A stretch of 64,000 nucleotides of DNA from contig CM049310.1 of NCBI GenBank assembly GCA_026874595.1, positions 66,480,056 through 66,544,055 of the forward strand, given 5' to 3'. Both the position numbers and the translations under genes were made by a program. Positions 8,727 to 57,152 of this stretch are shown piece after piece (within the stretch, counting starts at the first letter, position 1; every line of letters begins with the position of its first letter). A model generated the notes under the pieces. That model saw only the letters and a program-made list of their open reading frames with translations, made no database searches and was not told where the DNA came from. The DNA is from Sipunculus nudus. Its lineage: Eukaryota; Annelida; Sipuncula; Golfingiida; Sipunculidae.

Positions 8727-10688
8727 ATGGAACAGACTGAACATTCCGACAGTTCGTCCATAGAAGAGGAGGACGTTATATACATCGGCACCGAACGCCA
8801 GCGGAACGAGTCGGAAGCGTTAAGCATCAGAGGTTTGTTTCTGAACTACATGGAGGTTGAAGATGCTCTGAGCCTCCGTGTTGATCTCCTCGCTTTAGCC
8901 ACAGACGTCAATCTGATAGATCTGCCTACGCTGCTGCCACACAGGGATGACCTCAAGTACGTGCAGTCGTATAGGGAAAGTGGAAAATCGGAAGCGCGCT
9001 CCATTATCACTGCTTTATACGTGAACTGTTCTTTGTTCAATGTAAACATATTGGAGCTATACCACAGGCTCTTCCAAAGAGGCATGTCCAACGCATGTGC
9101 CCTGTTAAGCGAGGTATTTGAAATCGGCATATTACAAGACTGTTTCAACAATGTGGTCCCGCACCGTTACTACCCGATCGTGTTGGTGTCTGATGACGAT
9201 GAACACATCATGCGGTTTACACAGTGTGAAGAAGAACAATTCATGCCGGGAGACGGATACAATGACGTAACACGTCCTGAGCCGCATGCGCAGCAAGAAG
9301 GAGGGGCGGAAAATGCAGACCAAGCGGACGAGGGTGAGGAAGGTTTGGATGCGCGGGAGGTTTCAATAGAACGTGAATACCAACGCGTACGTGAGGCTGT
9401 TTTAGCGTATATCGAGAAAGACGTTTGGTATGAGCCGGAGTTCAGGATCGCATACACCCTGTTTGATGCCACACAATGGGACAGCTTGGTGGCCGACCTG
9501 GTCGGAAGTATACGTTTAACTAGGCTTTTAATGAAATTACTAAAAAAACACGGTATGATAGACGCCTCCTTGAGCAAAACTGAAGTCGAAGACATCTATA
9601 AGAAACAGGACGTCCGACGCGTGCTCGGTCATATCTATCGCCCTGGGGAGACAACACGGAGGAAAGCATTTAAACGCCTGTTACTCCTGAGGTTTTGCGT
9701 CCAGGTGGCGAGGCAGACAGATGCCGATAGGTGTCTCCGGGATTTCCTGCCGGCAGAGATGGACTTTAATCAACCAGGTCGTGTTTCAGGGATCACCGGT
9801 TCACATAAATGCAACGTAGCGTTGCATCCTGACATGAATTGGAATGGCCGCTTTCCCAGGAGAAAAAGGCGATATACCACAAGGCCGTCATCACCCGCCC
9901 CGTCTTCGACCTCGTCACAATCGCGTACTGAGAGCCCGTTTGATGCAGGTCGGGAATTATTGCAGTTGATGAATTCCATAACAGCAACCAACCCGCCCCA
10001 AAATGTCGCTGACGACACAGACGCCTCTGATCCATTGACTTCTGAACGTCGACCTCCCGTGGACCCTGCGCCTCCATCGGAACATGATACATCAACCCAG
10101 GGAGGTCAGACCCGATCTGATAACATTTTGCCTGCACCCAAAAGGTTAAAGCTTCGACACGTCAGGACGGGCGCCACCGAAGCAGCGATGTTTCCTCCAT
10201 ATACGGGTGGCAATGCGGAAACAGTTTCGGCAGCACCTGACACATCAATCCGTTCGGCGACAGTTTCTGCTTGCAGAGGTTCGGCAAACGTTTCAGATCC
10301 AGGCGTTGTCGTTTCCAGTGTGGAGGAGCAGCTCGCACACGCTCAGACCATGATTGCCCAGCTTCAAAGTAATGAAAGGGATGCCCAGGAAAGGCTAAGT
10401 CGCTTCCGGTGTCCAATTTGTTTGGAGAACACCGTGGACTGTTTCCTAAAAAAATGCGGACACATGTTTTGTCACAGATGTATAATGGCGGTGTTCTCCT
10501 ACAATGAAAATAGAAACGACTTTCAAGCGTTTATAAATCGCTTGCGCGACAACATGTTCCGTTCCACGTCCCGTTCCACGTCCCGCGAGGAGGTCCATTG
10601 TCCGACATGCAGGGTACCCAACAAACGCACTGATGTGGTGAAGATATACATCTGGTGGGTGGCGTGTCGTTTTGTAAATATGTTTTGA
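8727..10688 (+). CDS. Tandem DED-like / coiled-coil / C-terminal RING protein, 653 aa
   Basis: The ATG at 8727 follows TTATCATTTCAG (AG at 8721-8722). Two helical regions, about residues 30-120 and 220-340, have the hydrophobic spacing of death folds. The second (LLKKHGMID then DIYKKQDVRRVL) is the better match to a death-effector domain. An acidic linker separates them. A low-complexity Ser/Thr/Pro-rich middle (about 370-520) contains RRKRR, a likely nuclear signal. A short coiled coil (528-558) leads into a RING: C-x2-C, then C-GH-x2-FC-x2-C, then CPTC near the C-terminus, with a long insert carrying an STSR repeat between the second and third ligand pairs. A role as a RING E3 ligase that engages DED proteins is inferred from domains. 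The DED calls are tentative, the RING is firm. Confidence 0.85.
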   Translation: MEQTEHSDSSSIEEEDVIYIGTERQRNESEALSIRGLFLNYMEVEDALSLRVDLLALATDVNLIDLPTLLPHRDDLKYVQSYRESGKSEARSIITALYVNCSLFNVNILELYHRLFQRGMSNACALLSEVFEIGILQDCFNNVVPHRYYPIVLVSDDDEHIMRFTQCEEEQFMPGDGYNDVTRPEPHAQQEGGAENADQADEGEEGLDAREVSIEREYQRVREAVLAYIEKDVWYEPEFRIAYTLFDATQWDSLVADLVGSIRLTRLLMKLLKKHGMIDASLSKTEVEDIYKKQDVRRVLGHIYRPGETTRRKAFKRLLLLRFCVQVARQTDADRCLRDFLPAEMDFNQPGRVSGITGSHKCNVALHPDMNWNGRFPRRKRRYTTRPSSPAPSSTSSQSRTESPFDAGRELLQLMNSITATNPPQNVADDTDASDPLTSERRPPVDPAPPSEHDTSTQGGQTRSDNILPAPKRLKLRHVRTGATEAAMFPPYTGGNAETVSAAPDTSIRSATVSACRGSANVSDPGVVVSSVEEQLAHAQTMIAQLQSNERDAQERLSRFRCPICLENTVDCFLKKCGHMFCHRCIMAVFSYNENRNDFQAFINRLRDNMFRSTSRSTSREEVHCPTCRVPNKRTDVVKIYIWWVACRFVNMF

Positions 10689-10975
10689 CCGTCCATCTGT
10701 CTGTATGTGTGTTGGTGTTAATATACTTGTTGTATATTGATATATATATATAAATATATATAAATATATATATAAACAATATATATATGTTGTAATATGA
10801 TAGTGTTGTGTCGTTATACATATGTGTTTATTTATTTCAGGGTCAAATAGGACATTCCATCCGAGCATCTGGCAATGTTTCACATGTTTGCATGATTTGC
10901 TGCCCCCCCCCTCACAGGTTTTGTTCTTCTTCTTATACAAGTGTACTTTTACATTATCATTTGCTTATGTTCCAG
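10689..10975. other. TA microsatellite and poly-C tract before a small gene
   Basis: TATATA repeats (10738-10790), an acceptor-like TTATTTCAG near 10830-10840, a poly-C tract (about 10902-10910) and an acceptor-like GCTTATGTTCCAG ending at 10975. No donor is obvious. Confidence 0.35.
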
Positions 10976-11284
10976 ATGAACCCAAAGGCGATATGCAGGT
11001 GTTACATGTCAACGCGAAGAGAGGGGCTGAAAGTATGCATTCGGTTAGATGGCCGAATTGATAAATGCCTTAAAGTGAGACTGGAGCGTATACAGTCACC
11101 TTGCCGGATTGACAAATGCCTGAGAGTGAGGCTGGAGCGTGTACGGGCACCTGGTACAAAAAAACACAATCATACACCCGAGCGACAGTTCATGTTCACA
11201 TCTGATATGCAACGGAAAATTCATCCAAAGCTGCGCTGGAAGCCTGCAGAGTTGTTAGGTTTTCTTATAAACCTGTACCCGTGA
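10976..11284 (+). CDS. Small basic protein with an internal duplication, 102 aa
   Basis: The ATG immediately follows an acceptor-like TTCCAG. The protein is Arg/Lys-rich and contains an internal repeat of about 20 residues: RIDKCLKVRLER at about 30-41, then a near copy at about 47-58. DNA shows the same ~60-bp duplication (about 11052-11150). No domain is recognised. It has no membrane segment or signal peptide. Basic composition suggests nucleic-acid or acidic-partner binding, which is inference only. The larger open frame upstream of this ATG covers microsatellite and poly-C DNA and is not used. Moderate confidence because it is short. Confidence 0.5.
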   Translation: MNPKAICRCYMSTRREGLKVCIRLDGRIDKCLKVRLERIQSPCRIDKCLRVRLERVRAPGTKKHNHTPERQFMFTSDMQRKIHPKLRWKPAELLGFLINLYP

Positions 11285-11888
11285 CCATTTCCACGCACGT
11301 TGTACAAACAACATTTTATCGAAAAGGTACATATATATATTTATTATATATATATATATTGTGGAACAATTCGCTGTCGTCTGTCACGCTGGCCACGCTT
11401 CTGTATATTGTGGGACAATTCGCTGTGACTACACATGACCTTTATGACATTTGCACGCTTGCCATGTATGTTTATCGATGATATGAAATATATCTGATAT
11501 ATGTAAACCTGTATAAATGTAAAATGTTTAAGTGAACGGAATATATTTATGTATACCTGACAACATGTCTCATTATTTATTTCATGTTTCCGTGTGTATG
11601 CAGATGTATGTGTGTGCGTTTATGTGTAAAATGTGCTTTGCTTGCGGTGTGTTGGGGTATGTTTTACGATCGCCCTCATCACCTGAAGACATATTAGAAG
11701 ATTACCAATCCTTTGTGCAGATATATACGTGTGTGCTTATATGTAAATGTGTGGTTTTGTAAGCTGGTGTACAGTGTACGTTGTTATATTCCACATAGCC
11801 TCAGGAAATATAAAAACGTACCCGGCCTTAATATCAGACATTGAACGACACTATCCCTTTGAAAAAAACAAATTGTAACACGAGGAAG

Positions 11889-11980
11889 ACAGACATCCAA
11901 CATACGCGAAAGACAGACATCCAACATACGCTAAAGACAGACATCCAACATACGTGAAAGACATACATCCAACATATGGT
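11889..11980. repeat. 24-bp tandem repeat, about four copies
   Basis: The unit ACATCCAACATACG followed by about 10 nt (GAAAGACAG-like) is repeated four times with few changes. The surrounding 11285-12201 region has no supported gene. A second small direct repeat (ACAATTCGCTGT) lies near 11366 and 11416. Confidence 0.6.
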
Positions 11981-12201
11981 TTTAAAACAAAAAATAAAAA
12001 CATCGGCAAGGGTGCATATACTGCCATCTGGCGGTGACTGTGCTATATAAACAGACACGACACGCAAAGTAGATATAACGCAACAAATAAGTAATGCCGA
12101 GTGGATTGTCTGTTATGAACACGAACAACTGACGTGATAGACAACACTTACACAAAGAAAATTGTATAGATGACAAACAGATGGAGAAAAATGTATCATG
12201 A

Positions 12202-12274
12202 AGGTGCTGGCGGGATTCGAACCCACAACCCCTGGCTTCGGAAACCAGTGCTCTATCCATTGAGCCACAACACC
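12202..12274 (-). tRNA. tRNA-Arg (anticodon CCG)
   Basis: On the minus strand a GGTGTTG/CAGCACC acceptor stem, a D-arm with a box A (TGGCTCAATGG), an anticodon stem CTGGT/GCCAG around loop TTCCGAA, and a box B (GGTTCGAATCC) form a full cloverleaf without intron. Loop positions 34-36 read CCG, decoding CGG (Arg). No CCA is encoded, as is usual for eukaryotic tRNAs. The discriminator would be T, which is unusual for Arg, so a tRNA-like or pseudo-tRNA is possible. Confidence 0.8.
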
Positions 12275-12634
12275 CACATCAATGTGCTCACACATGACGT
12301 AACATGTACATACGGCTGGCTGACGAAACCAGAAGGTTATAAATGTTTATGTTAAAATAACAATCAACTGCGCACATTTCTTACAGCGACAATGTTCCGG
12401 ATTTGGGAAGACGGGGGGAGAGGGGAAAGGGGGGGGGGGGCAAGTGTGAAACGGAAGACGCCGAGAGAAGGAGTTGTTATGTAACAATCATAATCATAAA
12501 CAACAAACACACCTGCACATTCATGTCCGTTTATTTGAACTTTGCCTGATGTAAGCTGTGTATTCCCCAAGCCAAAAAAAAACAAAAAAAAACGGATCGA
12601 CATATTCATCTTTCTCCCGCAAACCAGGTGCCGT

Positions 12635-13183
12635 TTATAACAACGGATACACCCCTCCCTTGTAAAAGGGGCGCTCAATGTCCAACTCTGACCTCCAGTC
12701 TGTGAACAAACATGTGACCCGATGTTTGACCTTTGACCACGGTGTAAAATCCACATCTGGCAATATTATCTGCAATTCCGCCATCAGCGACTCCATCAAA
12801 TGCCATCGCGCCATTGGCGCATTTGACACGAAATCTGCGAAATCATGAAATGTCTCCACATCGTTGCCGCAATTTACAGGCAGGTACTTCTCCATAAGGG
12901 GAGCTATTGCATCCTGTTTGTCCAGTTCGTCATATAGCTGAACAGAACGTTCACACGAGAAAGCGTCTTCAAAACGTTCACTCATGTCATATGTTGTTTC
13001 CAATGAACAGTCACAGCAGTGGCCATCCACGCCTTTACAATCACTGTCACAATCGCATGTCACGTGAAGCAAGCACTTGCATTTATCACAGTATACATCG
13101 TTGCTACTTTGACCTGGACCTTTTGTGACACATGCATCCATGGTTCCTTCGTCCATGTACAGGAGTCCGTCACACAGCCCCAT
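12635..13183 (-). CDS. Cys-rich protein, 182 aa, PHD-like cysteine cluster
   Basis: The first ATG of the frame is at 13183 (a TTG lies two codons upstream). Residues of about 30-60 contain YCDKC, then L-x-HVTC, then a CDC-x3-C string, then CCDC. This resembles the second half of a PHD-type zinc finger (C-x2-C, H-x2-C, C-x-C), but the first ligand pair is not evident. The remainder (about 70-182) is helical and acidic, with no recognised family. No signal peptide is evident. It lies alone between tRNA-Arg and the double-CARD gene on the same strand. A zinc-binding adaptor role is inference. A secreted Cys-rich protein is less likely without a leader. Confidence 0.65.
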   Translation of the reverse strand: MGLCDGLLYMDEGTMDACVTKGPGQSSNDVYCDKCKCLLHVTCDCDSDCKGVDGHCCDCSLETTYDMSERFEDAFSCERSVQLYDELDKQDAIAPLMEKYLPVNCGNDVETFHDFADFVSNAPMARWHLMESLMAELQIILPDVDFTPWSKVKHRVTCLFTDWRSELDIERPFYKGGVYPLL

Positions 13184-13494
13184 ACACAAGTATCTATCAT
13201 CAGTACAAATAGATACACGTTCACATCGTCACGTCGCTTCATCGTATTTATCATCATCATTGCAGTGAGAAAGTTTGTGTGATATGAGGCGAGCGACCAG
13301 TCGGTGAATGCTAGGATTGTTATAACGGAAGGGGGCAAAAGGGGTGGAGGGAGGGGGAGGTGGTGGTAGTGGCAGAATCCATATTTTGTGACACGTGGAC
13401 AACCGTCTCACACATTCATTAACACGTATACGTGTACACGAGAATGACACATATGTAACATGTACCATAAAAGTTTATTTCAGGTTATTACATA

Positions 13495-13660
13495 CCAAGC
13501 AGTGGTTTAATCACATGTGCATATATGGTCACGAATGTTCTGTTATCTCCACCAAGCAGAAACGTATCAGAACAACCAATTACGAATGTTTATATGAACA
13601 TTTCCCACATTCCAAGCAGAGGTTTATTCACATGTGCATTTATGTCACGAATGTTCAAAT
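13495..13660. repeat. Imperfect direct repeat (about 46 bp, two copies)
   Basis: CCAAGCAG-GGTTTA-TCACATGTGCAT followed by TCACGAATGTTC occurs near 13495 and again near 13612 with a few changes. The second copy includes TTTATT, which on the minus strand is AATAAA and could serve as the poly(A) signal of the gene ending at 13674. Confidence 0.5.
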
Positions 13661-13673
13661 AACAACGTACGGG

Positions 13674-14504
13674 TTATTTTTTCCGGTTACTCTGCAGGAA
13701 TGCGATGTAATCGGGAAACAAGACCTGCACGCCTGACAATCTGAGACCACGTGCGATTGTTCCACCTATCTGTCCGTATCCTGCCTCGTGAAAGATAACC
13801 GCCAGTTTGTTCCAGTACCACAGCGGAAGTTTTTCAAGGTAAGTCAAAAAAGTCAAGCGCCTTTTAAACGCTAATCCGGTGATGAGAAACAGTTTATCCC
13901 TTTGAAACTGGTTCATTATATGCAAGTCTACGCACAAACGCGTAACGACACAGGACTCGTCCATGCACAGGATGTCATCCCGGATAAACAGGGGACGTAT
14001 ATATACAGCCATGAGGACACCAAGGTCTTTCTCGCCGCCTGTGGATGCTCTTGGACATGTGTACCGTCGGGAATGAAAGAATGCCTCCAGCCGAGACAGT
14101 TTTTTACTGTAAGCAGGATCTTGTACCGTTTTATTCATCTTATGATCCGCAGTCGGGGCCCGCGGCAGGCTCTGTATGGCGTGTCGCATGACCACGTTCC
14201 AAAAAAAATAATACACCTGCGATTCACCGGTTCTGCAAAATAGCTTCATGGCCTCGTCCATTTTTTCTAAAGGGAACCGCCCTGCCAGATGACTAAGCAG
14301 CATGACGCCGCGTACTTTGGCACGTTTTTCTTGCATGATGTTTTCAAACATCGTACGATCAAGGAAACCGAGCTGCAACATTATATTCCAAAGGGGGGAT
14401 GTCACCTTCGTGTGGATTTTCTGAGCCAGTGTGGGTATCTGACGTCCCATGTACCTCATTACAGCTTCGCTGTTCGCATACACCTCAGACCGGATATGGG
14501 CCAT
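13674..14504 (-). CDS. Double-CARD protein, 276 aa
   Basis: Two caspase-recruitment-type six-helix modules are visible at about residues 10-98 and 165-250. Module 1 shows the classic order: hydrophobic helix 1, L-x-x-L-G-FLD, an I-x-x-E-K-R helix, L-L-S-H-L, then K-L-F then R-T-G-E. Module 2 repeats it (I-L-x-MD, then an F-Q-R-D-K-L helix, then F-L-T-Y-L-E). CARDs assemble apoptotic and inflammatory complexes by homotypic binding, so a decoy or adaptor role is inferred. The ATG abuts a strong CT-rich acceptor (TTCTGTCACAG) at 14505-14506, implying a spliced leader. The upstream DNA shares a cassette with the unrelated genes at 15940 and 18142. A C-terminal basic RKK ends the protein. Confidence 0.8.
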   Translation of the reverse strand: MAHIRSEVYANSEAVMRYMGRQIPTLAQKIHTKVTSPLWNIMLQLGFLDRTMFENIMQEKRAKVRGVMLLSHLAGRFPLEKMDEAMKLFCRTGESQVYYFFWNVVMRHAIQSLPRAPTADHKMNKTVQDPAYSKKLSRLEAFFHSRRYTCPRASTGGEKDLGVLMAVYIRPLFIRDDILCMDESCVVTRLCVDLHIMNQFQRDKLFLITGLAFKRRLTFLTYLEKLPLWYWNKLAVIFHEAGYGQIGGTIARGLRLSGVQVLFPDYIAFLQSNRKK

Positions 14505-14544
14505 CTGTGACAGAACAGAGAGAGAGAGATAGAGATAGATAAAT

Positions 14545-14720
14545 TACAGACAGGGTATCATGTAAAAATGACCATCCGACCTTGCACGCCAACATTTCAA
14601 ACCCTGCGTACAGGCACATCCATACCGCAGTTTCGCCGGCAAAACTCCGATTCTTGCATGCGATACATAAAAAAGGAGACGGTAGTGAAAGTTACATCAT
14701 TTATTCCGAACTAACTGGTA
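14545..14720 (-). repeat. Intergenic cassette shared by three genes
   Basis: This block is clearly homologous to 15960-16150 and more weakly to 18175-18320. Shared words, in order, include AGGGTA-CA, ATCCRA-CT, GCACGCCAACATT, CATCCATACC, TTTCGC-GGCAAA, GGAGACGG and AAAGTTACATCATTTATTC. Read on the minus strand it carries AATAAATGATG (a poly(A) signal for the gene to its right) followed by the leader of the gene to its left. It is attached to a double-CARD gene here and to basic-tailed proteins in the other two places, so promoter and leader were duplicated with different coding parts. Confidence 0.6.
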
Positions 14721-15076
14721 CAAGAATATCTACTGCGCTATCATCCAAACTGTTACAAACAATATATATCAAAAACTGTCTTATAAACTATGAAACCGAT
14801 ATATGTAAGGCATACACGGACAAAATATTTACAGTAGGTACACATTAAACAAAATACATATCAAGTGCGATCTATGATAAAAATAAGACAAGTTAACTAA
14901 ACCATAACATGTACCTTGATTGTACGTACGTGGCATTAACAAATGGGTATTAAAATGCGATCATATAACAAAAGTTCTCTTGGTCAAAGATACCACATAT
15001 ATCCTGTACACCACACAGTGTGTACCGCCCTTCACAGGGGCAAAAAATGTACATTTCTTGGTTGAAATGATTTTCT
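14721..15076. other. Short intergenic region
   Basis: AT-rich, with several ATATAT stretches. No gene, repeat or promoter stands out beyond being the 3' flank of the gene ending at 15077. Confidence 0.35.
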
Positions 15077-15940
15077 TTACTTTGTGTTCCTTTTTTTGTT
15101 CCTTTTTTTGCCACGCATCTTGCGTTTCTTGATGACGCGACCTGTTTTAACTGTTGTGGTTTTAGGTTGATCCTGCGCGGTAGAAGTCACGCGGCGTTTT
15201 TTCTTCCTCGCTATTTTTTCCGCTTTTTCTTCTGCGATACATATGGCCTCATCATTTAACCATTTCAAATAATCCGCGAGCCTGTCCCAGTTCAAGCGGT
15301 GGTCCTGCAGAGCTTCATATGGTACCCATTTGGTCGTATTATCCAGTGTGTCAATCATATCAATATAAAGGGTCTCCACCCAATCCATGTACCCTGACAG
15401 TTTACATAGAGCTGGGTACACCAGATCCTGGCACGGCATGTCTGTCAGTTCGTCGACGGTTTCATACATCTGCATATACGTATTCCAGTATTCCCTATCG
15501 TGCACAAAAACGTCTCTTTCGTTTCGTCCATCCCAGGATTCTTCCTCGAATTGTTTGATGTACCCTGGATACCGCGACATGATATCAACCAACAGCCTCG
15601 TCTTTAATGAGAAATCTTTCAAAACCTGGCACACTCCTTCTTCATCGGGTGATTCTAGTACACGTTTGTCCGCATCATTGGCCAGTTTTAGGAGCGCCTC
15701 AGTGTTGTCCTTTAACGCTCTTCTGGCTGACGTTTCGTGCATCAGTCGGTACTTGTTTCGGGTTTCTTCATCCGACGAGTCATCGGATGACGACGAGTCA
15801 TCCGATATGTCGGAATCTGGGGTGTTGGCTTTTCCTTGGTAGTTGAGTGAACAGTCTTGGTTGTCAGGGTCGTCCGTTTGATGGCTCGGGGCGTCCACCA
15901 TGTCAGTCATTGTTTGGTCGCACACTTCTGTCGTTTCCAT
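15077..15940 (-). CDS. Basic-tailed nuclear-like protein, 287 aa (family of three)
   Basis: Start at METTEV (15940) because a TATATTGCAG acceptor lies 14 nt upstream, and because the family's similarity to 18529-19119 begins exactly at that junction. The open frame continues upstream to 16099, so an unspliced longer form cannot be excluded. Layout: an acidic Ser/Asp-rich region (about 35-70), a helical core with a PGYI-x-F motif and a DL-x-x-A-L-C-x-LS segment, then a KKKRRVTST block and a KKRK-rich tail, probably a nuclear signal. The same core and tail occur in the paralogue at 17273-18142. No enzyme motif is visible. Function unknown. Preceded by the shared cassette. Confidence 0.75.
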   Translation of the reverse strand: METTEVCDQTMTDMVDAPSHQTDDPDNQDCSLNYQGKANTPDSDISDDSSSSDDSSDEETRNKYRLMHETSARRALKDNTEALLKLANDADKRVLESPDEEGVCQVLKDFSLKTRLLVDIMSRYPGYIKQFEEESWDGRNERDVFVHDREYWNTYMQMYETVDELTDMPCQDLVYPALCKLSGYMDWVETLYIDMIDTLDNTTKWVPYEALQDHRLNWDRLADYLKWLNDEAICIAEEKAEKIARKKKRRVTSTAQDQPKTTTVKTGRVIKKRKMRGKKRNKKRNTK

Positions 15941-16568
15941 TTGTAACGGGCGTGCTGCAATATACACAAAACGCATTAAGGGCAGGGTATCAGGAAAATG
16001 ACAATCCAAGCTAGCACGCCAACATTCAAACTCTCTGTACAGTGAAACATCCATACCCCTGTTTCGCTGGCAAATCTCCGATGCTTGCCTGCGATGCATT
16101 AAAACGGAGACGGAAATGAAAGTTACATCATTTATTCCGACTAAATGTTACAAAGAATGTTTATGCCGATGGTTATAAAAATTAACAAACAGTCTCATCA
16201 TCACCTAACAAAACATACACCAGAAATCAAATACATCACAAAATTATATGTTACATTTTTTTGGTGGTTATATGAATATCAAACAACCTAACGCTTACAT
16301 TATACATCAAACCTACTTCTATGAGGCACATATTGTTAAAATATTTACATCAGGTACACACATGTAACTGTACGAAATATGTTGAAAATACAACAAAATA
16401 TATGTAAGCAAAATATTATATGTAAACAAAACTGTAGCAGACTCTTGGATTACAGGTACGTAGCAGTAAATATGGACAAAAAAAAAGAAAGAATTACATT
16501 ACAAAACAGTTCTGTACAAAGGTATTTATGCATCGGGCAGTCTTGGTGTGAAAAAGTTGGCTACATAT
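15941..16568 (-). other. Second copy of the shared cassette, then AT-rich DNA
   Basis: 15960-16150 is the second cassette copy (leader of the gene to its left plus an AATAAA of the gene to its right). 16150-16568 is AT-rich without a supported gene. Confidence 0.45.
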
Positions 16569-17132
16569 TCACATCAGACCACACACTGAGTTCTGTCGTT
16601 TACGATCACGCATACTTTGTTTCCTTGCACGAGCAGCAGCATCTCGACCCCGACGTTTCTGTATCTCACACCATAAACCATCCTTACATTTACGCAGCAT
16701 GTTGCACTTATACAATATTTTCTGCAGATCTCTTTGAGTATTCCGATTGTGTTGCAGCTCCTTTATTAAACAATTGTATTTCTGCTGTACACGGGTAAAG
16801 TACCGATGCAATAACAGCAATGCAGCGACCACGAAGCCATCGCAACGTGCGTCTTGCTTGTACAGTCTTCCAGAAATATAATTAAACAGCGTGTGATATG
16901 TGGCCTTAAACCAGCATCTATCGCTGAGGTACAAATCAGGGAGGCCGTGAAGTCCTGTCGTGTCGAAGATACGCACGTACACCTCTAACATTAATGCAAC
17001 CCGGCGGCAATCAAACATGTACATCTTATGTATAGCTGATGTAGACCTTTTGGCACGTCTTTCGTAGATATCCGCCAGCCGTCTCAACTGTCGGCAGACC
17101 CGTCTATCAAATATATCCTGTATGTCCGTCAT
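16569..17132 (-). CDS. Unassigned helical basic protein, 187 aa
   Basis: I chose the ATG at 17132 because TATCTGTTTGCAG lies 14 nt upstream. The 12 codons before it would be intron. The protein is all-helical, rich in Tyr and Leu, with a strongly basic C-terminus (RRGRDAAARARKQ then RDRKRQ), a plausible nuclear or RNA-binding tail. Overall helix density is like the 160-185-aa proteins at 1.3-4.1 and 19.3 kb, but I see no motif that proves kinship. It sits between two members of the basic-tailed family. Function unknown. Confidence 0.7.
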   Translation of the reverse strand: MTDIQDIFDRRVCRQLRRLADIYERRAKRSTSAIHKMYMFDCRRVALMLEVYVRIFDTTGLHGLPDLYLSDRCWFKATYHTLFNYISGRLYKQDARCDGFVVAALLLLHRYFTRVQQKYNCLIKELQHNRNTQRDLQKILYKCNMLRKCKDGLWCEIQKRRGRDAAARARKQSMRDRKRQNSVCGLM

Positions 17133-17272
17133 CGTGCCAACACAAGCTGCAAACAGATACGATACCATTTACTGATAATGTCAATGGATACAACAAAATC
17201 ACGAGAGCAAAGGAAATATTTGTACATGTCTTTGTTGAAATATGTCTTTGTTGATGAAAGTTTTTCTTTTGT

Positions 17273-18142: not shown

Positions 18143-18528
18143 TATCGTATCGGGTGTGCTGTAATAATCCATAAACGCCATTAAGGGAAGGGTAGCAGGA
18201 AAAACACCATCCAACTTAGCATGCCAACATTCAAACTCCAGGACACTGAAACAACCATATCACGTGATTCATGAAAAAAACTAAAAGACATTAATACAAC
18301 TTACAATCATTTATTCTGATGAGATAATACAAAACTTGAATAATACAAGATACGACAATCACGTATTCTAATTGAGGGAATACGGGGATATTAAGATCGA
18401 TATACTGATCACACTATCTACTGTCACTTACAAAAACCAAACATCTGCAATGGGTAAATATATTGGCATATTTACATGTTTATCCACAAGTCCGTTCAGC
18501 CATAAGTCCTTTTGTAAACATAACACTG

Positions 18529-26284: not shown

Positions 26285-26289
26285 TGCAC

Positions 26290-26331
<42 letters not shown>

Positions 26332-30307: not shown

Positions 30308-30348
<41 letters not shown>

Positions 30349-47640: not shown

Positions 47641-47734
47641 TTTCCATGGCTTTTAACGATTTTGTTTTGACACGTTTGTCCTTGAGTGAAAGTATCGCGG
47701 TTATCAGATATATGTAAAAAGTTGTTTTGTTCAT
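47309..47734 (-). CDS. Unassigned protein, 141 aa
   Basis: The ATG at 47734 is followed by a modest hydrophobic stretch (FYIYLITAILSL), which might act as a signal or anchor. The rest is polar with several Cys in the last 60 residues. No recognised domain. Its C-terminal half is duplicated at 46876-47109, and amino-acid changes between copies are as frequent as silent ones, so selection is not evident. It is divergent from the 794-aa gene; about 160 nt separate the starts, so regulatory DNA could be shared. Tentative. Confidence 0.4.
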   Translation of the reverse strand: MNKTTFYIYLITAILSLKDKRVKTKSLKAMENPHENIRFNVLSVNESRPKHGNNNILYIVSTNQMYESAVHPVQVLFSLPFLEKSRHTMSMYVCANNFLQEIRHVAQTVTQGQMCHNNCANIGKTRPQAFGQCPERLVTAA

Positions 47735-47774
47735 GTTGGAATTTCCACAGTATTACGTAATGTCTGGGTTACTG

Positions 47775-47783
47775 GCTATAAAA
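47775..47783 (+). promoter_or_regulatory. TATA box of the 794-aa gene
   Basis: GGCTATAAAAGC is a near-consensus TATA box about 120 nt before the ATG at 47893. Initiation near 47805 gives an ~88-nt leader and needs no intron. Confidence 0.65.
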
Positions 47784-47892
47784 GCTCAGCAGTACCAAAC
47801 ATTCAGCAGAACCTGCCACGCACTGCTACCAGCCGGTTGAAACTGCTGCTGCTGTTGCTATTCTCTACATTACAAAAGCAGTCTTCAGCGAC

Positions 47893-50277: not shown

Positions 50278-50384
50278 ACTGATACTTTCCACGTAAAACG
50301 TAATGTGGTTCTGTGTCATTGTGAAAAAGCGAGCCAACACGAAACTCAAAATGCTTGACTGTTTATTGTGTATGGAGATGAAAA

Positions 50385-50800
50385 TATATGCTAAAGGTTA
50401 TGTTTAAAGTTGATTACTGTTGATCATGTGAAATGTCAAAATGAAATGTCGAAATGAAATGTCAAAATGAAATGTTAAATGAAATGTCAAAATGGAATGT
50501 CAAAATGAAATGTTAACATGATATGTCTAACTGTGTATGTTTCAAAACAGCGATCACGGATGATATATATATTATTATACGGCTTAACAATATATGCTTG
50601 TCTCATACGTCACCCGACGTTATGCTAAAAGATGATTACTGTTGATAATGTCAAATGTAAATGAAATGTCAAAATGAAATGTCAAAATGAAATGTTAACA
50701 TGAAATGTCTAACTGTGTATGTTTCAAAACAGCGATAACGGATGATATATATATTATTATACGGCTTAACAATAGATACTAGTCTCAAACGTACGGCTTG
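50385..50800. repeat. Two ~170-bp direct repeats containing AAATGTCAAAATG short repeats
   Basis: A 13-bp word (AAATGTCAAAATG) is iterated about six times at 50430-50510 and three times at 50650-50700. The following ~110 bp, including GTCTAACTGTGTATG and GGATGATATATATA, occurs twice (50520 and 50705). No gene is seen between 50278 and 51104. An AATAAA at about 50912 is the first poly(A) signal after the 794-aa gene. Confidence 0.7.
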
Positions 50801-51301
50801 TTGTTTTCTGAAAAGGACATTGTATGACAGCGTCTGTATGGTATGTGATATAACGTAAAAAACCACTATTGATCAGAGTTTGGGATTGTGGATACTTAAT
50901 ACATAATATTAAATAAATATGGCTTTATATTTTCGGTACGCCCATTTTACATGCCATCATTAAAAATGTCAATATATATATATATATGTAAACATGATAC
51001 ACTCCATGCTATCGAAACATATTTCACGATCCACCAAGATGCCAGCATTCAGTCATTCTAAGTCTGACTCAGATATTAAATCTGTTACACATATCTCCTC
51101 TGTGGACATGGTTAAAATAGTTCCGGTAACATACGATAGGGGGCGCTGCCTCATACAGCACTGGTCAACACAACAAATTAGCCCTTTGCCGGACAACGGT
51201 CTACATGACATTTACGAAATACCTGCTAAAATTTTAGGAAAAATATGCCTCAAACATTCCACGAGTAACACACACACCAAAGATTAAATGTGTCCACAAC
51301 C

Positions 51302-51315
51302 CTACTATATAAGCA
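51302..51315 (+). promoter_or_regulatory. Inward-facing TATA box in the left arm
   Basis: CTACTATATAAGCAGG is a good TATA box. The mirror copy (minus strand, about 54140-54155) faces it from the right arm, so both would transcribe toward the palindrome axis. No protein is evident downstream of either. Confidence 0.4.
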
Positions 51316-51477
51316 GGCCGGCTCTATAATACTATCAGTTGAGAGCGCTCTATGGGCGCTTTTTGGTCCCAGACGGCTCCCCTGTGTCTGTGACGTCACA
51401 CTTTCCATCAGCCAATCAAATCAAGGAACAGTACCTGTTCATGATAACATAAGAAACTCACGTACACAAAGCATGTA

Positions 51478-51550
51478 GTCCCTGTGGCGCAATGGTTAGC
51501 GCGTCCGGCTGTTAATCGGAAGGTTGGTGGTTCGAGCCCACCCAGGGACG
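51478..51550 (+). tRNA. tRNA-Asn (anticodon GTT)
   Basis: Acceptor stem GTCCCTG/CAGGGAC with discriminator G. D-arm with box A (TGGCGCAATGGTTAGCGCG), anticodon stem TCCGG/TCGGA with loop CTGTTAA (GTT at 34-36) and T-arm with box B (GGTTCGAGCCC). No intron and no encoded CCA: a typical animal tRNA-Asn. It lies in a ~210-bp segment present only in the left palindrome arm. That segment is flanked by two copies of a ~36-bp sequence beginning CTATGGGCGCTTTT (51348 and 51558). Confidence 0.92.
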
Positions 51551-52084
51551 TTATACCTCTATGGGCGCTTTTGGCTCCCAGACGGCTCCCCTGTGGGGGA
51601 GGGGGGGACTTGAGGGGGGGAGGGGGCGGCCCCTCCCTCTGCCTTATGTCAAGAAGTAGTAGAGTTGTGGGCTTGTGGCCACCAGGGGTCGGTTGTGTGG
51701 TTCAAGTCAGAAGTAGACCAGTTGTAGGTTTGGGGATCGCCGGCAGGGGGGGGGGGGAAGAAGAGTCGGTAGGATGTGAAAGGTCGGTCTGGGTCGTCGA
51801 GGTTAGAGATGAAAGGTCAGTAGGGTTTACCGGGGGGGGGGGGGACCAGGGGAGTTCTGGGTGGGATCGCCTGGCGGGGGGGGGAAACAGGGGAGTTCTG
51901 GGTAGGATCGCCCGGCGGGGGGGAACAGGGGAGTCCTGGTTGGGATCGGAGACCCATGTGAATGGTTAAAGAGTGTTCATCGGATATCATCGGTACTGGA
52001 AAAGCCACAGGTGTGCAACGCATGTCAAAGCACTAGGGGATCGTTCAGATCCCGACAGAGGGTCTCCACTGGGGCCGAGACCCC

Positions 52085-52785
52085 TATAGAAATTTCTCCA
52101 CAGGGCTCGTGGTGGGGGCTTCGCCCCCGGGAAGAATACTTTATGTGGGATCGATCCCTACAAAGAATATACACAGGGGGCGAGGCCCCCATAAGGAATT
52201 ACATGGAAGGCCCGTGGTGGGGGCCTCGCCCCCGGGAATAATACTTTATGGGGGATCGATCCCTAAAAAGAATATACCCCGGGGGCGAGGCCCCCATAAG
52301 GAAATATATGGAAGGCCCGTGGTGGGGGCCTCGCCCCCAGGTGATAATACTTTATGTGGGATCGATCCCTAAAAAGAATATACACAGGGGGCGAGGCCCC
52401 CATAAGGAATTACATGGAGGGCCCGTGGTGGGGGCCTCGCCCCCGGGAATAATATTTTATGGGGGATCGATCCCTAAAAAGAATATACACAGGGGGCGAG
52501 GCCCCCATAAGGAATTACATGGAAGGCCCGTGGTGGGGGCCTCGCCCCCAGGGGAAAATACTTTATGTGGGATCGATCCCTAAAAAGAATATACACAGGG
52601 GGCGAGGCCCCCATAAGGAATTACATGGAAGGCCCGTGGTGGGGGCCTCGCCCCCAGGGGAAAATACTTTATGTGGGATCGATCCCTAAAAAGAATATAC
52701 CCCGGGGGCGAGGCCCCCATAAGGAAATATATGGAAGGATCGTGATGGGGGCCTCGCCCCCGGGAGAATACTGTATGGGGATCGG
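52085..52785 (+). repeat. Left-arm 106-bp tandem repeats, six copies
   Basis: GGGATCGATCCC recurs at 52147, 52252, 52358, 52463, 52569 and 52675 (period 105-106 bp). Each unit also holds GGGGGCGAGGCCCCC and its partner GGGGGCCTCGCCCCC, so every unit can fold on itself. Units differ mainly in the spacer after CGCCCCC. Confidence 0.92.
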
Positions 52786-52859
52786 GGCGCCGAAGGCGCC
52801 AATACACAGATGTATGTATGGAGGGCGCCTTCGGCGCCTAGATCCCTAAAATGAATATT

Positions 52860-53570
52860 CCCGGGGGCGAGGCCCCCACCACGGGCCCTCCATCTAAATC
52901 CTTATGGGGGCCTCGCCCCCAGTATATATTCTTTTTAGGGATCGATCCCACATAAATTATTATCCCCTGGGGGCGAGGCCCCCACCACGTGCCTTCCATG
53001 TATTTCCTTATGGGGGCCTCGCCCCCAGTGTATATTCTTTTTAGGGATCGATCCCCCATAAAATATTATCCCCTGGGGGCGAGGCCCCCACCACGTGCCT
53101 TCCATGTATTTCCTGATGGGGGCTTCGCCCCCTGGGTATATTCTTTGTAGGGATCGATCCCACATAAAGTATTTTCCCCTGGGGGCGAGGCCCCCACCAC
53201 GGGCCTTCCATGTAATTCCTTATGGGGGCCTCGCCCCCTGGGTATATTCTTTGTAGGGATCGATCCCACATAAAGTATTTTCCCCTGGGGGCGAGGCCCC
53301 CACCACGGGCCTTCCATGTAATTCCTTATGGGGGCCTCGCCCCCTGTGTATATTCTTTTTAGGGATCGATCCCCCATAAAGTATAATCCCCTGGGGGCGA
53401 GGCCCCCACCACGGGCCCTCCATGTTATTCCTTATGGGGGCCTCGCCCCCTGTGTGTATTCTTTTTAGGGATCGATCCCCCATAAAGTATAATCCCCTGG
53501 GGGCGAGGCCCCCACCACGACCCCTGTGGAGAAACCTCTATAGGGGCCTCGGCCCCAGGGGAGATTCTGT
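52860..53570 (-). repeat. Right-arm 106-bp tandem repeats, six copies
   Basis: The same unit in inverted orientation, with GGGATCGATCCC at 52938, 53044, 53150, 53256, 53362 and 53468. Copy number equals that of the left arm, which implies that the whole array was inverted and duplicated as a block, or is homogenised by replication. Confidence 0.92.
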
Positions 53571-54163
53571 GGTGATCGGAACGATCCCATTGTGCTTTGA
53601 CGTGTGTTGCACACCGTTGGCTTTCCCAGTACCGATGATACCCGACGATCACTCTTTATCCATTCACATCCGTATACGAACCCCCCTAGGACTCCCCTGT
53701 TCCCCCCCCCTTGTGACCCCTGTTGACCTTTCACCTCCGACCGGATCCCACTCACAACTCCCCTGTTCCCCCCCCCCAGGCGACCCCTGCTGACCTTTCC
53801 CCTTCGACCCGATCCCATCCAGAACTCCCCTGTTCTCCCCCCCCCCCGGCGACCCCTGTTGACTTTTCACATCCGACCTCGACGACCCCAACCGACCTTT
53901 CACATCCAACCGACCCTTATTCACCTCCTGCCGGTGATCCCCAAACCTACAACCGGTCTAGTTCTGACTTGAACCACACAACCGGCCACAGACCCACAAC
54001 TCTACTATTTCTTGACATAAGGCAGAGGGAGGGGCCGCCCCCTCCCCCCCTCAAGTCCCCCCCTCCCCCACAGGGGAGCCGTCTGGGACCCAAAAGCGCC
54101 CAGAGAGCGCTCTCAACTGATAGTATAATAGACTCGGCCTGCTTATATAGTAGGGTTGTGGAC

Positions 54164-54725
54164 ACATTGAAATCTTTGGTGTGCGGCAGATTTCACGTTT
54201 GTGCAAGATGTACGCGCAAACTGAAAAAGATATCGCAAATGTTACTCGTTGAACGCTTAAAGCATATTTTTCCAAAGATTTTAGCACATATTTTGTAAAT
54301 GTTGTGTAGACCGTTGTCCGGCAAATGGCCATTTTGTGTTGCTGACCAATATGACGGTGTCAGTATCGCCACCTGCCGACGACAAGTGGAACTATATCAG
54401 ATAGACAACGGATTTATCTAATTAAGTTGCACACATGAAACAACATTGAAATCTTTGGTGTGCGGCAGATTTCACGTTTGTGCAAGATGTACCCGCAAAC
54501 TGGAAAATATATCACGAATGTCACTCGTTGAACGTTTGAGGCATATTTTTACTAAAATTATTGCAGGTATTTCGTAAATGTTGTGTAGACCGTTGTCCGG
54601 CAAATGGCCATTTTGTGTTGCTGACCAATATATTGGCGTCAGTATCGCCACCTGCCGACGACAAGTAGAACTATATCAGATAGACAACGGATTTATCTAA
54701 TTAAGTTGCACACATGAAACAACAT
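54164..54725. repeat. 279-bp direct repeat, two copies, right flank of the palindrome
   Basis: ACATTGAAATCTTTGGTGTG starts at 54164 and 54443. The copies stay about 93% alike to AAGTTGCACACATGAAACA. The same unit, inverted and more diverged, forms the outer end of the left arm (51105-51290), so the right side has one additional copy. Confidence 0.75.
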
Positions 54726-55584
54726 TTGTGCGGACTGCATACTTTAATTGAACTGGATGTTTTGTGTGCCTTTATGTATTTATAAAATGTATCAGAAAAT
54801 GATCAGGAATCACATATGCGGATGATCATGGCATAAAGAAGACCGTGAAACTTTCATATTTTATTCATTATATAAGTTCCGTCTTATGAGTTCCACAGGT
54901 ATTGTGACGTAGATTCAGGCAAAACATTGTTGAAAATAACGAGTACATCAAGTTTTTATACATATTTTTGAAATATTGTCACATATGCATTTATTTAAAA
55001 TTTCGTTTTCTGAGTTTGGAAGTATCAAGTGATATCAACATCTATTAGTATGTTTGTCGTATCTGGTTGATCAGATCCATATAACATCTGGTTGTTCAAA
55101 CGATTTTCGTGCATTCGCATTGGATGTGCCTAAAATATACATCTGGGTGACGAATGGTTTTGATGTACCCGTCTTCTTCTTTTTAAAAAATGTATATAAC
55201 GTGAAAGTACACCTCGGCGTGCAGGGTTTTCTGTATCGGGTGTTTAATCTGAAACCGATCGCCAACGACAAAACTAATTTATGAATACATGCAAACACGC
55301 AGATAGTTATCGAGCAGCGATGAAAAAGCAGATTACCAGCAAACGTATTAAGATCATACCAGGGACGAACCCTGTTTAACCACATTTCAACCCGTCACCC
55401 CTCATATACATATATATATATATTCATGTGAGCTTGAGAAGCCGTCACCCCTTGTTTCATGGCGGGTGAGACCTTCCGAATACATGCATCCCATTCAAGC
55501 CACGCCCACGCAACACATTGTGTTTGACGTACCCAACAGTTGCGGACGTGTGCTCATTCTTGATTATACTTCGGACACAGCGTG
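54726..55584. other. Intergenic region with a possible short leader intron
   Basis: No supported gene in the AT-rich first part. A TA-rich TATA-like stretch (55405-55425) is followed by a strong donor-like GGCGG|GTGAGA (gt at 55466) and an acceptor-like GGACACAG (to about 55580), which would remove ~115 nt just before the ATG at 55585. Confidence 0.4.
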
Positions 55585-56127
55585 ATGCATTCGCTCCCAG
55601 CCGACGACCAGTTAACCAGCAGGTTGTGCGACAAGAACGAAATGACATATCTGATGGACAATTTGATGGGTCACGCGGAGCTACTTTTGAAGAAGATCAA
55701 AGTCCTTGACGACAGATCAACTGATGTATTTCCCAGATCGTGGCAGTGCGTGGAACTGGTTGACGGCGTGGACCCGTGGCCACCCAGCCTCTGCTTGAGT
55801 ATGATAACTGATATCGGGAGAGGGTACGGGATCACACTTGATGAGGCTACTTTGACGGCTGTGTATAAAACGGAACCGTGGGTCAGCTGGCACAGGATAT
55901 GCCCTTCGATCACAGTGAACCTTACACGCATGGTCCCGACGGCTGAAGCCCGATGCCTGGCTGTGTACATATTGTACTGCTTCTTTAGCAAAGAGTACCG
56001 AGTGTCTCACGCTGACAGTGATTTCCACAGGGGTCTGCTGTGTTTCAAGTACTGCCCGTGTAGCCGATACCAAAAGAGGAATGTAACCTCCCGTTGCTGC
56101 TGTGTGTCATTTGGTCCTTTCTCGTGA
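55585..56127 (+). CDS. Unassigned Cys-rich-tailed protein, 180 aa
   Basis: The ATG at 55585 is three bases after a GTG of the same frame and five bases after an acceptor-like ACACAG. It begins MHSLPADDQ and is helical through about residue 135. The C-terminal ~35 residues contain seven Cys, including CFKYCPC and CCC, plus basic residues. This could be a metal site, a palmitoylation cluster or a disulfide tail. No signal peptide. Family unknown. It precedes the double-CARD gene in the same direction, but each has its own upstream signals. Confidence 0.65.
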   Translation: MHSLPADDQLTSRLCDKNEMTYLMDNLMGHAELLLKKIKVLDDRSTDVFPRSWQCVELVDGVDPWPPSLCLSMITDIGRGYGITLDEATLTAVYKTEPWVSWHRICPSITVNLTRMVPTAEARCLAVYILYCFFSKEYRVSHADSDFHRGLLCFKYCPCSRYQKRNVTSRCCCVSFGPFS

Positions 56128-56477
56128 AAGCGTCATTGTGTACCTGATATCTGATAGCGTACGTCACACACAATAACACCAGTGCATACATCTCCTCATG
56201 GTGTTTTTATATCTATATGTGTTCATGTCGCGTGGGATAATGCATCTCAGAAACGTATCTTCGCTCATGCAGTTGACTGACCTTGAAATGAGGCCATTTT
56301 TTGTTATGTCACATGAGCTCTGCCGTTACTCAGATTTGAATTTGGTAAACAATTTTGAGCCAATGCCGTCAACCTCCAGGCATGCGCACTGCCTGACTGT
56401 ACATGTTCGAAAACACATAAAAGCAGCGGTGATGTCTAGTTGCCAGACACAATTCATGTTGGAGCCCTACCACGACC

Positions 56478-57152
56478 ATGGCTTGTTCTTCACATTGGCA
56501 CGAGGCGTTTTACGGCATACTGCCCCGTTTGGCATCTGCATTGTACGTGAAACAGAGTCTGCTGCCTGACGAGCTGTTGGCAGAGGGGTTTCTCGACAGG
56601 GACGAGCTGGATAATGTCAGGGCGAAGATGACTAATTCGGAACAAGCCGAACTGTTGCTGCACACACTGGCGGATACGAACACTCCCAGAAGGCTTGACA
56701 AAGCTATGAAAATTATAGGGCGTCATCACCCAGACGTTTTGCGGATGTATCAAGATCGCATGAAAGCACTGAGTCGGGATGAGAAAAAGGCTCGACCACA
56801 CGGTTCGCCTCCGGCTAAGGTGTCTTCGTCTTGGAACGACAGTTTTTACAAAATACTTCCCGGTATGGTCGACAAATTAGACGTGCTGCATACCGACGTA
56901 GTTGATGCACTGGTTGCGCGAGGGTTTATCAACGACAACATGGTCGAGCAGATACGTGATCACAGAACAAACACGGCCCAAGCCAGAACACTCCTGTACC
57001 TCCTTCTTGATAACAACGGTGTATATGAACTTGATGCTGCCATGGGGTTGCTGCGCGGCCATTACCACGCGCATGTGTCGGATTTTTATAAACAAGGTAT
57101 GAAACATCTCGATCGTCCCATGCTGGTGGAAAACGTGAACAACCGTTCGTAA
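56478..57152 (+). CDS. Double-CARD protein, 224 aa
   Basis: Two CARDs at about residues 10-95 and 122-205 are internal duplicates of each other. Each starts FY-x-ILP-x-x-x-x-L, then has LLAEGFLD or LVARGFIND, a RAKMTNSEQAELLLHTL or RDHRTNTAQARTLLYLL helix, a LDKAMKII or LDAAMGLL helix and H-x-H/DV. The N-R/T spacing before helix 4 is typical of CARDs. There is no effector domain, so an adaptor or decoy is inferred. A TATA-like ACATAAAAGC (about 56413) gives initiation near 56445. An overlapping 123-codon ORF in another frame spans this promoter and is not a gene. AATAAA at 57470-57475. Confidence 0.85.
   Translation: MACSSHWHEAFYGILPRLASALYVKQSLLPDELLAEGFLDRDELDNVRAKMTNSEQAELLLHTLADTNTPRRLDKAMKIIGRHHPDVLRMYQDRMKALSRDEKKARPHGSPPAKVSSSWNDSFYKILPGMVDKLDVLHTDVVDALVARGFINDNMVEQIRDHRTNTAQARTLLYLLLDNNGVYELDAAMGLLRGHYHAHVSDFYKQGMKHLDRPMLVENVNNRS

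What the first reader, a model, noticed from the sequence alone, without database searches (positions are those of the whole stretch)
8727..57152. Concentrated arsenal of death-fold, BIR and RING proteins
Within about 48 kb I count nine genes with CARD-type folds (13674, 37741, 40840, four at 41.8-43.9, 44552, 56478; about a dozen modules). There is also a DED-like/RING protein and a BIR-BIR-UBA-RING IAP. Four architectures recur: CARD-only, CARD-CARD, CARD-RING and CARD-CARD-RING. Such a set aimed at homotypic death-domain assemblies is far beyond the few vFLIPs, viral CARD proteins or IAPs known from individual viruses, so it may be an undescribed multi-protein system that caps or ubiquitinates host CARD/DED complexes.
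Basis: partly seen in the sequence, partly recalled or inferred. Interest (0 to 1): 0.88.

Follow-up and report, generated by a model that had tools for sequence, protein, structure and literature searches.

The report
Herpesvirus-carrying jumping element with CARD arsenal
This stretch is part of a 225,000-letter unit that carries herpesvirus genes plus a transposase gene, with marker genes found at more than 50 places in one large, likely animal, genome; it is likely moved by that transposase, and eight of its genes encode CARD-type cell-death domains that are predicted to stop the host cell from killing itself.

Summary
Pfam finds CARD domains in eight window ORFs (five over the curated cut-off), RING fingers beside two of them, and a spliced BIR-BIR-RING IAP. 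The CARD-RING model has a confident six-helix CARD. CARD in 13674 and DED in 8727 are not confirmed. The window is neither a viral contig nor a host immune locus. It lies inside a 225-kb unit on contig C5 of a 1.43-Gb genome. The unit carries the herpesvirus terminase domain PF02500 (55 places genome-wide), other herpesvirus-type genes and an intact MULE transposase. Seven copies read at both ends share the same terminal bases; six have exact 9-bp target-site duplications, one 8 bp. This fits a Mutator-type transposon carrying a herpesvirus genome, analogous to Teratorn (piggyBac plus alloherpesvirus, fish) but with another transposase superfamily. The CARD genes recur about 50 times at roughly 1-2% divergence. 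Three are open in nearly all compared copies with piN/piS 0.22-0.41; others show no such constraint. The likely function, capping or ubiquitin-tagging of host CARD assemblies, is inferred only. Host species and herpesvirus family are undetermined.

The parts
1..64000 (.). Left-hand part of a 225-kb unit spanning C5:66462050-66687271 (about window -18,005 to +207,216)
   Evidence: termini shared with copies on C9, C16 and C5:42.47M; 9-bp duplication at this copy
8727..10688 (+). 653-aa protein with C-terminal RING; N-terminal DED not supported; diverged paralogue at L010:4952-5722
13674..14504 (-). 276-aa protein with weak similarity to the first CARD of 56478; CARD not confirmed
34546..37152 (-). 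Spliced IAP: BIR, BIR (split by an intron), UBA-like stretch, RING; full length in all 40 scored places of 64 candidates
37741..38538 (+). 265-aa CARD protein, open in 20 of 20 copies compared, piN/piS 0.22
40840..41493 (-). 217-aa CARD-RING protein, open in 19 of 20 copies compared, piN/piS 0.41; confident CARD model
41828..42361 (-). CARD-only paralogue C1 (open in 16 of 20; CARD match just under cut-off)
42371..42757 (-). CARD-only paralogue C2 (open in 20 of 20; CARD match under cut-off)
42929..43354 (-). CARD-only paralogue C3 (open in only 6 of 20; CARD match under cut-off)
43478..43924 (-). CARD-only paralogue C4 (open in 20 of 20)
44552..45820 (-). CARD-CARD-RING gene; the first CARD is cut by one stop codon in this copy; exact gene start not determined
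51284..54171 (.). Large palindrome of about 106-bp units, centre about 52812; a 97% copy lies about 148 kb to the right in the same unit, in inverse orientation
56478..57152 (+). CARD-CARD protein (38.5 bits, two stretches)
58061..60928 (+). Two paralogous C-type lectin domain proteins
61426..63225 (-). Intact 599-aa MULE transposase with FLYWCH zinc finger; full length at 99-100% identity in all 40 scored places of 55 candidates

Best explanation
The window is the left-hand part of a 225-kb unit with imperfect terminal inverted repeats and a 9-bp target-site duplication that carries herpesvirus packaging genes and a Mutator-type (MULE) transposase gene, and whose marker genes recur at more than 50 places in a 1.43-Gb genome; it is likely moved by that transposase, and its CARD, CARD-CARD and CARD-RING proteins are predicted to bind host CARD assemblies and block them or tag them with ubiquitin, so that a cell with an active copy would not die. 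Shown here: the chromosomal setting, the copies, the shared ends and duplications of seven copies, the herpesvirus terminase domain, the intact transposase frame, the CARD, RING and BIR domains, and low piN/piS for three CARD genes. Inferred: that the MULE protein performs the transposition; that copies passed through a replicating herpesvirus stage; that CARD-only proteins act as dominant-negative caps, as known CARD-only proteins do; that CARD-RING proteins are ubiquitin ligases aimed by the CARD; and that the IAP acts downstream on caspases or NF-kB-type signalling.
For: Chromosomal setting and copies: CARD-RING 51 places and CARD-265 53 places, hand-listed and recounted (150 of 650 candidates scored, so lower bounds). 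Terminase PF02500: 55 of 55 candidates, all over cut-off, 47 of 55 in a 409-aa frame, none with stops inside the match. Within this very copy: PF02500 at L056 (37.0 bits, cut-off 25), PRTP-like gene at L012 (E 1e-4, 21.0 bits, under its 24.6 cut-off) and YqaJ domain at L014 (30.9 bits, cut-off 22). Largest frame seen (1637 aa; 1401 aa searched) without stops in 31 of 33 scored copies of 59 candidates. Ends: seven copies read at both ends share the same terminal bases; six have an exact 9-bp duplication, one 8 bp. Terminal repeats of one copy (C9): 71 of 96 aligned columns identical. MULE: all 40 scored places (of 55 candidates) are full length at 99-100%; 39 of 40 have a CARD gene of the unit within 16-39 kb, and the 40th (C2:0.57 Mb) has the 1401-aa frame, the terminase and a right end nearby; no solo MULE seen. 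Constraint: piN/piS 0.22 (37741), 0.41 (40840), 0.31 (3' part of 44552); intergenic pi 0.0157. Fold.
Against: No expression, binding or enzymatic data. Two CARD-only paralogues have piN/piS above 1 (C2 2.44, C4 1.55), C1 has 1.15, and C3 is open in only 6 of 20 copies, so constraint is not uniform. Gene conversion among paralogues and copies can distort these ratios. The transposase sits inside the unit, not next to an end. Terminal repeats are only about 74% identical. Six of 51 copies lie within 260 kb of a contig end, which could point to another integration route for some. No DNA polymerase or capsid family was matched in the pieces scanned, and most of the scanned unit ORFs have no Pfam match. 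The 14 control genomes without PF02500 also lack CARD, so they may be prokaryotes and a weak control. Units of other lengths exist, for example ends 166 kb apart on C7. The window's own CARD-CARD-RING gene carries a stop.
Confidence: 0.72

Rival explanations
1. The herpesvirus entered the genome by another route (telomere-type or other recombination) and spread by segmental duplication; the MULE gene is a passenger.
For: Six of 51 copies lie within 260 kb of a contig end against 0.32 expected (threshold chosen after looking). The MULE gene is internal.
Against: Seven of seven end-checked copies share the same terminal bases, six with exact 9-bp duplications and different flanks. Segmental duplication would carry flanks along.
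Confidence: 0.1
2. The CARD and RING genes are ordinary host immune genes in a normal cluster.
For: The genome has other CARD genes outside the unit (e.g. L001-L008), and the IAP has introns.
Against: The same genes recur about 50 times; 20 fetched copies of the cluster include 14 at 98.3-99.3% identity in one piece. Herpesvirus genes lie in the same unit, and six window CARDs form one clade.
Confidence: 0.02
3. The element is real but the CARD proteins nucleate rather than block host assemblies, for example activating NF-kB-type signalling or controlling latency.
For: CARDs can seed filaments, and tandem-CARD proteins often signal (established knowledge). Nothing here separates the two.
Against: CARD-only proteins without an effector domain, and a co-resident IAP, fit inhibition better (inference).
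Confidence: 0.2
4. The CARD genes are decaying cargo with no present function.
For: C3 is open in 6 of 20 copies, the window copy of 44552 has a stop, and C1, C2 and C4 show no purifying ratio.
Against: 37741 (20 of 20), 40840 (19 of 20) and the 3' part of 44552 (18 of 19) are open with piN/piS 0.22-0.41.
Confidence: 0.08
5. Assembly artefact or contaminating free virus merged into the host assembly.
For: Near-identical long copies are hard to assemble.
Against: Terminase places lie on all 17 large contigs, and seven copies have different flanks with matching duplications at both ends.
Confidence: 0.02

Closest known systems
Teratorn and Teratorn-like elements (piggyBac fused with an alloherpesvirus, teleosts; passages of PMC5601938, PMC10175614, PMC6431247 and one passage of PMC5822658 seen)
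   Same: Giant unit with terminal inverted repeats and target-site duplications, a transposase gene, herpesvirus genes, tens of copies, two subtypes, and immune- or apoptosis-related cargo
   Different: MULE (PF10551 plus FLYWCH) instead of piggyBac; varied 9-bp instead of TTAA target duplications; about 225 kb instead of about 180 kb; CARD, CARD-RING and IAP cargo instead of the Mcl1-, TNFR- and CXCR-like genes listed there. Host here unnamed.
BelcheriHV-1, an integrated malacoherpesvirus of the lancelet Branchiostoma belcheri (PMC12373286: section 8 and passages seen)
   Same: Large herpes-like genome integrated in an animal chromosome, with a sparse-coding block
   Different: [quoted passage not shown] here marker genes at more than 50 places with transposon-like ends
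Cellular cIAP1/2 (BIR-BIR-BIR-UBA-CARD-RING; architecture recalled)
   Same: CARD next to an IAP-type C-terminal RING; the best solved RING matches of 40840 are XIAP and BIRC proteins, with CBL close behind
   Different: CARD-RING proteins here lack BIR and UBA; CARD-CARD-RING is a different order
Ranavirus CARD proteins such as grouper iridovirus CARD (PMC4457926: start of abstract in a search listing)
   Same: Virus-encoded CARD-only protein described as anti-apoptotic
   Different: One 91-aa gene there, against eight CARD genes here, two joined to RING fingers

Membership tests
Herpesvirales | Herpesvirus-type terminase (DNA packing) domain PF02500 | tested here: met
   L056:192-1418, 37.0 bits against cut-off 25; 55 of 55 candidates genome-wide over cut-off, 0 of 14 control genomes (controls possibly prokaryotes)
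Herpesvirales | PRTP processing and transport protein (PF01366) | tested here: inconclusive
   L012, E 1e-4, 21.0 bits, under the 24.6 cut-off
Herpesvirales | Viral alkaline exonuclease (PF01771) | tested here: inconclusive
   YqaJ-type nuclease 30.9 bits over cut-off 22, but Viral_alk_exo only 15.6 bits, under cut-off 20
Herpesvirales | Herpesvirus major capsid protein | tested here: inconclusive
   Largest frame (1637 aa, 1401 aa searched) has no Pfam match and no homologue at E<=1e-3
Malacoherpesviridae | Protein trees with OsHV-1 and HaHV-1 | not tested
   No reference proteins fetched; one viral-contig scan with the 1401-aa piece found nothing
Mutator-like (MULE) DNA transposon | MULE transposase domain | tested here: met
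   PF10551 43.4 bits over cut-off 27.6; FLYWCH 32.1 over 23.6
Mutator-like (MULE) DNA transposon | Target-site duplication of about 9 bp (size recalled, from no call) | tested here: met
   Six of seven copies exact 9 bp, one 8 bp
Mutator-like (MULE) DNA transposon | Terminal inverted repeats | tested here: met
   71 of 96 aligned columns identical in one copy; terminal bases the same in seven copies
Mutator-like (MULE) DNA transposon | Demonstrated transposition | not testable with these tools
   Needs a bench assay or insertion polymorphism data
Teratorn-like elements | piggyBac transposase and TTAA targets | tested here: not met
   The transposase found is a MULE; duplications are varied 9-mers
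CARD proteins | Pfam CARD over cut-off and six-helix fold | tested here: met
   37741, 40840, 43478, 44552 and 56478 over cut-off; six-helix model made for 40840 only
CARD proteins | Pfam CARD over cut-off in 41828, 42371 and 42929 | tested here: inconclusive
   23.2, 20.2 and 17.7 bits against 23.9; paralogues of the others
CARD proteins | CARD in 13674 | tested here: inconclusive
DED proteins | DED in 8727 | tested here: not met
   No death-fold family at E<=1 in Pfam; no structure model was made
IAP (BIR-BIR-UBA-RING) | BIR domains and C-terminal RING | tested here: met
   BIR 86.5 and 53.5 bits; RING 56.8 bits; UBA not matched

The most novel reading that the evidence does not exclude
A herpesvirus has become a Mutator-type transposon: one 225-kb unit that is at once a virus genome and a cut-and-paste element, with some 50 young copies in one genome. 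It has evolved an in-house family of CARD, CARD-CARD and CARD-RING proteins plus a spliced IAP as a dedicated kit that disarms CARD-based death assemblies whenever a copy becomes active.
Probability: 0.6. Interest if true: 0.93.

Novelty: new variant of a known kind. Interest (0 to 1): 0.88.

Why it matters
Teratorn showed that a herpesvirus and a cut-and-paste transposon can fuse, with piggyBac in fish. A fusion with a different transposase superfamily would show that this route is general. Its size would also be striking for a Mutator-type element: none of the Pack-MULEs of one 2004 survey exceeded 7 kb (PMC6431247, passage), and complete arthropod MULEs are given as 1.4-10 kb (PMC13359780, start of abstract in a listing). 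The CARD/CARD-RING family would be a natural collection of proteins shaped to recognise host CARD assemblies, useful for learning which CARD complexes matter in antiviral cell death. About 50 copies at roughly 1-2% divergence make selection on each cargo gene directly measurable.

Tried and rejected
Host immune cluster, free viral contig and assembly artefact were considered and rejected on the copy map and junctions.
A first guess that the left end lay at L009:921 was wrong: two more copies shared the flank there. The true end is at L010:1995.
Telomere repeats: none of the (TTAGGG)n or (TTAGG)n patterns sought was found in the window or in L001-L014.
Relatives: scans of viral contigs with five proteins found none. 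The protein search with 44552 found one 189-aa relative, P0001, 61% identical over 59% of the query, on a 5.8-kb ENA contig. The 1401-aa piece found none.
The model of 13674 is too poor to use; hhalign is weak.
Host species: not identified. C18-C20 are 52-92 kb, so C1-C17 are the large contigs.
Paper searches behind the statement that I saw no earlier report: in one open-access library only. The term check in PMC11092209 used whole-word matching, partly on word stems, and says little.
Dropped rows: L031 (C12:5.52 Mb) from the copy alignment because only pieces matched; L025 from the 44552 ratio because its similarity ends inside that gene; end pairs that I could not match or that lay at other spacings, such as 166 kb on C7, from the list of 20 lengths.
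Full report
What was checked. The finding lists CARD, DED, BIR and RING genes between 8727 and 57152. Pfam finds CARD in eight ORFs, five of them over the curated cut-off, and RING fingers in 8727, 40840 and 44552. The IAP is a spliced gene with BIR domains and a RING. CARD in 13674 and DED in 8727 are not confirmed. Of the four genes at 41.8-43.9 kb, three are close tandem duplicates and the fourth (43478) is a more distant paralogue. The six-helix model of the CARD-RING protein is confident over the CARD (residues 21-110, pLDDT 88-95) and poor over the linker and much of the RING. Foldseek finds CARD8, RIP2, Apaf-1 and NOD1 CARD chains. None reaches E 0.001; fold probability is about 1.0 for most of these and TM-scores to the better-aligned CARD targets are about 0.7-0.87. 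cIAP1 is listed, but superposes badly.

Where it is. The window is C5:66480056-66544055 of an unnamed 1.43-Gb genome in 153 contigs; C18-C20 are under 100 kb, so C1-C17 are the large contigs. The CARD-RING gene is at 51 places on 16 of these contigs and the 265-aa CARD gene at 53, about 3.4 kb apart where both were listed (hand-listed, recounted; 150 of 650 candidates scored, so lower bounds). Twenty copies of the 37.6-45.7 kb stretch were fetched. Fourteen align in one piece at 98.3-99.3% identity; L025 is cut at 7.3 kb; L023, L026, L030 and L033 align in two or three pieces, mostly at 97.4-99.1% with one block near 91%; L031 aligns only in part.

What carries it. To the right of the window lie a YqaJ-type nuclease gene (30.9 bits, over cut-off), a PRTP-like gene (21.0 bits, under cut-off) and the terminase domain PF02500 (37.0 bits, over cut-off). 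PF02500 is found at 55 places on all 17 large contigs, all over its cut-off, 47 of them in a 409-aa frame, none with stops inside the match. The tool's 14 control genomes have none, but they also lack CARD, so they may be prokaryotes and a weak control. The largest frame seen (1637 aa) has no Pfam match; the searched 1401 aa are free of stops in 31 of 33 scored copies (59 candidates). The unit is therefore herpesvirus-derived by its packaging gene; its family is not placed.

How it moves. The window encodes an intact MULE transposase with a FLYWCH finger. All 40 scored places (of 55 candidates) are full length at 99-100% identity. Thirty-nine of the 40 have a CARD gene of the unit within 16-39 kb; the other, C2:0.57 Mb, has the 1401-aa frame, the terminase and a right end nearby. 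The unit's left end was found by comparing copies and its right end by the inverted match to the left end. In the window's copy it runs from C5:66462050 to 66687271, 225,222 bp. For 20 copies that I paired from the two end lists, lengths are 215-233 kb (for 13 of them the exact right end is extrapolated; ends at other spacings, such as 166 kb on C7, were left out). Seven copies were read at both ends. Six have exact 9-bp duplications: TCTCGCACC (window copy), CGGATGGAG (C9), AAGAGGAAG (C16), ATAGAATTC (C12), TGATTTGTG (C11) and CCTAACATC (C10). The seventh (C5:42.47 Mb) has 8 bp. The terminal repeats, compared in the C9 copy, match at 71 of 96 columns. Nine-bp duplications fit Mutator-like elements (recalled knowledge). 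That the MULE protein does the work is inferred.

Two subfamilies exist: 17 left ends match the window's at 99-100% and 23 at 92% over 200 bp, plus one short match (40 of 117 candidates scored).

Selection. On 20 copies (the window plus 19; L031 dropped), piN/piS is 0.22 for 37741 (open in 20 of 20), 0.41 for 40840 (19 of 20) and 0.31 for the 3' part of 44552 (18 of 19; L025 dropped). The 439-aa neighbour has 0.65 (19 of 20). C1 has 1.15 (16 of 20), C2 2.44 (20 of 20), C3 0.42 (6 of 20) and C4 1.55 (20 of 20). Intergenic pi is 0.0157. The CARD-265 gene and, less strongly, the CARD-RING genes thus look constrained while copies spread. The CARD-only duplicates are either evolving fast or drifting; few changes and gene conversion make this uncertain. 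The window's 44552 gene is broken by one stop in its first CARD, whereas the frame is open through the visible part in 17 of 20 copies.

Origin of the CARDs. A tree of ten window CARDs and eight CARDs from elsewhere in the genome groups six window CARDs (97/93) and, separately, 56478a, 56478b and 13674a (98/96, with very long branches); 37741 joins one of the other CARDs at low support (81/75). So two or three captures followed by expansion fit. The eight are only the best Pfam matches, so the donors are not known. The IAP with its introns, full length in all 40 scored places of 64 candidates, suggests capture at DNA level rather than by reverse transcription (inference).

How it likely works. 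CARD-only proteins cap homotypic CARD assemblies; CARD-RING proteins could bring a ubiquitin ligase to the same assemblies; the IAP could act downstream. This follows from established knowledge of viral CARD proteins, ICEBERG-type decoys and cIAPs. No step of it was tested here. The 56478 CARDs match Apaf-1 CARD and Apaf-1-based designed proteins best among solved chains, but only weakly (E 0.15-0.9).

Comparison. Teratorn is the closest known element (passages of PMC5601938, PMC10175614 and PMC6431247). It uses piggyBac and TTAA targets, so this is not a member of that family, though it works like one. In the passages and searches made I saw no MULE-herpesvirus fusion; only an open-access library was searched. 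The lancelet BelcheriHV-1 (PMC12373286, section 8 and passages) is an integrated malacoherpesvirus at low copy number with no transposon features in the text I saw.

Verdict. The death-fold arsenal is real but belongs to a transposon-like endogenous herpesvirus. The element is the larger discovery. The anti-death mechanism is plausible and untested.

Noticed in passing
window 51284-54171 and L058: Large palindrome of about 106-bp units, with a second copy about 148 kb to the right in inverse orientation at 97% identity; could be a replication origin or inverted repeats of the herpesvirus genome.
   Followed up: partly
window 51478-51550 and 12200-12275: A tRNA-Asn gene within the palindrome's outer part and a tRNA-Arg gene, both over the Rfam cut-off.
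   Followed up: no
genome G000, ends of C5, C6, C11, C15 and C17: Six of 51 CARD-RING copies lie within 260 kb of a contig end against 0.32 expected (threshold chosen after looking).
   Followed up: partly
window 24000-33000: About 9 kb poor in long ORFs with several AT-rich repeats, inside the unit; sparse coding reminiscent of block 2 of BelcheriHV-1.
   Followed up: no
window 7164-7649: 161-aa ORF that looks by eye like a retropepsin-type protease with an altered active-site motif; no Pfam match.
   Followed up: no
window 15077-19119; 5824 and 33605; 2307 and 3586: Further paralogue families of unknown function inside the unit.
   Followed up: no
L012:1586-2785: A further RING-like protein of 400 aa in the unit, outside the window (under the curated cut-offs).
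   Followed up: no
L057:308-1999: Frame of 564 aa with EGF-like stretches in the unit, possibly a surface protein (under the curated cut-offs).
   Followed up: no
G000:C14:42105894-42106148: A terminase hit in a 427-aa frame, unlike the usual 409 aa; possibly a second, related herpesvirus element.
   Followed up: no
P0001: A 189-aa CARD-RING-type protein, 61% identical to 44552 over 59% of it, on a 5.8-kb ENA contig: a relative exists elsewhere.
   Followed up: no
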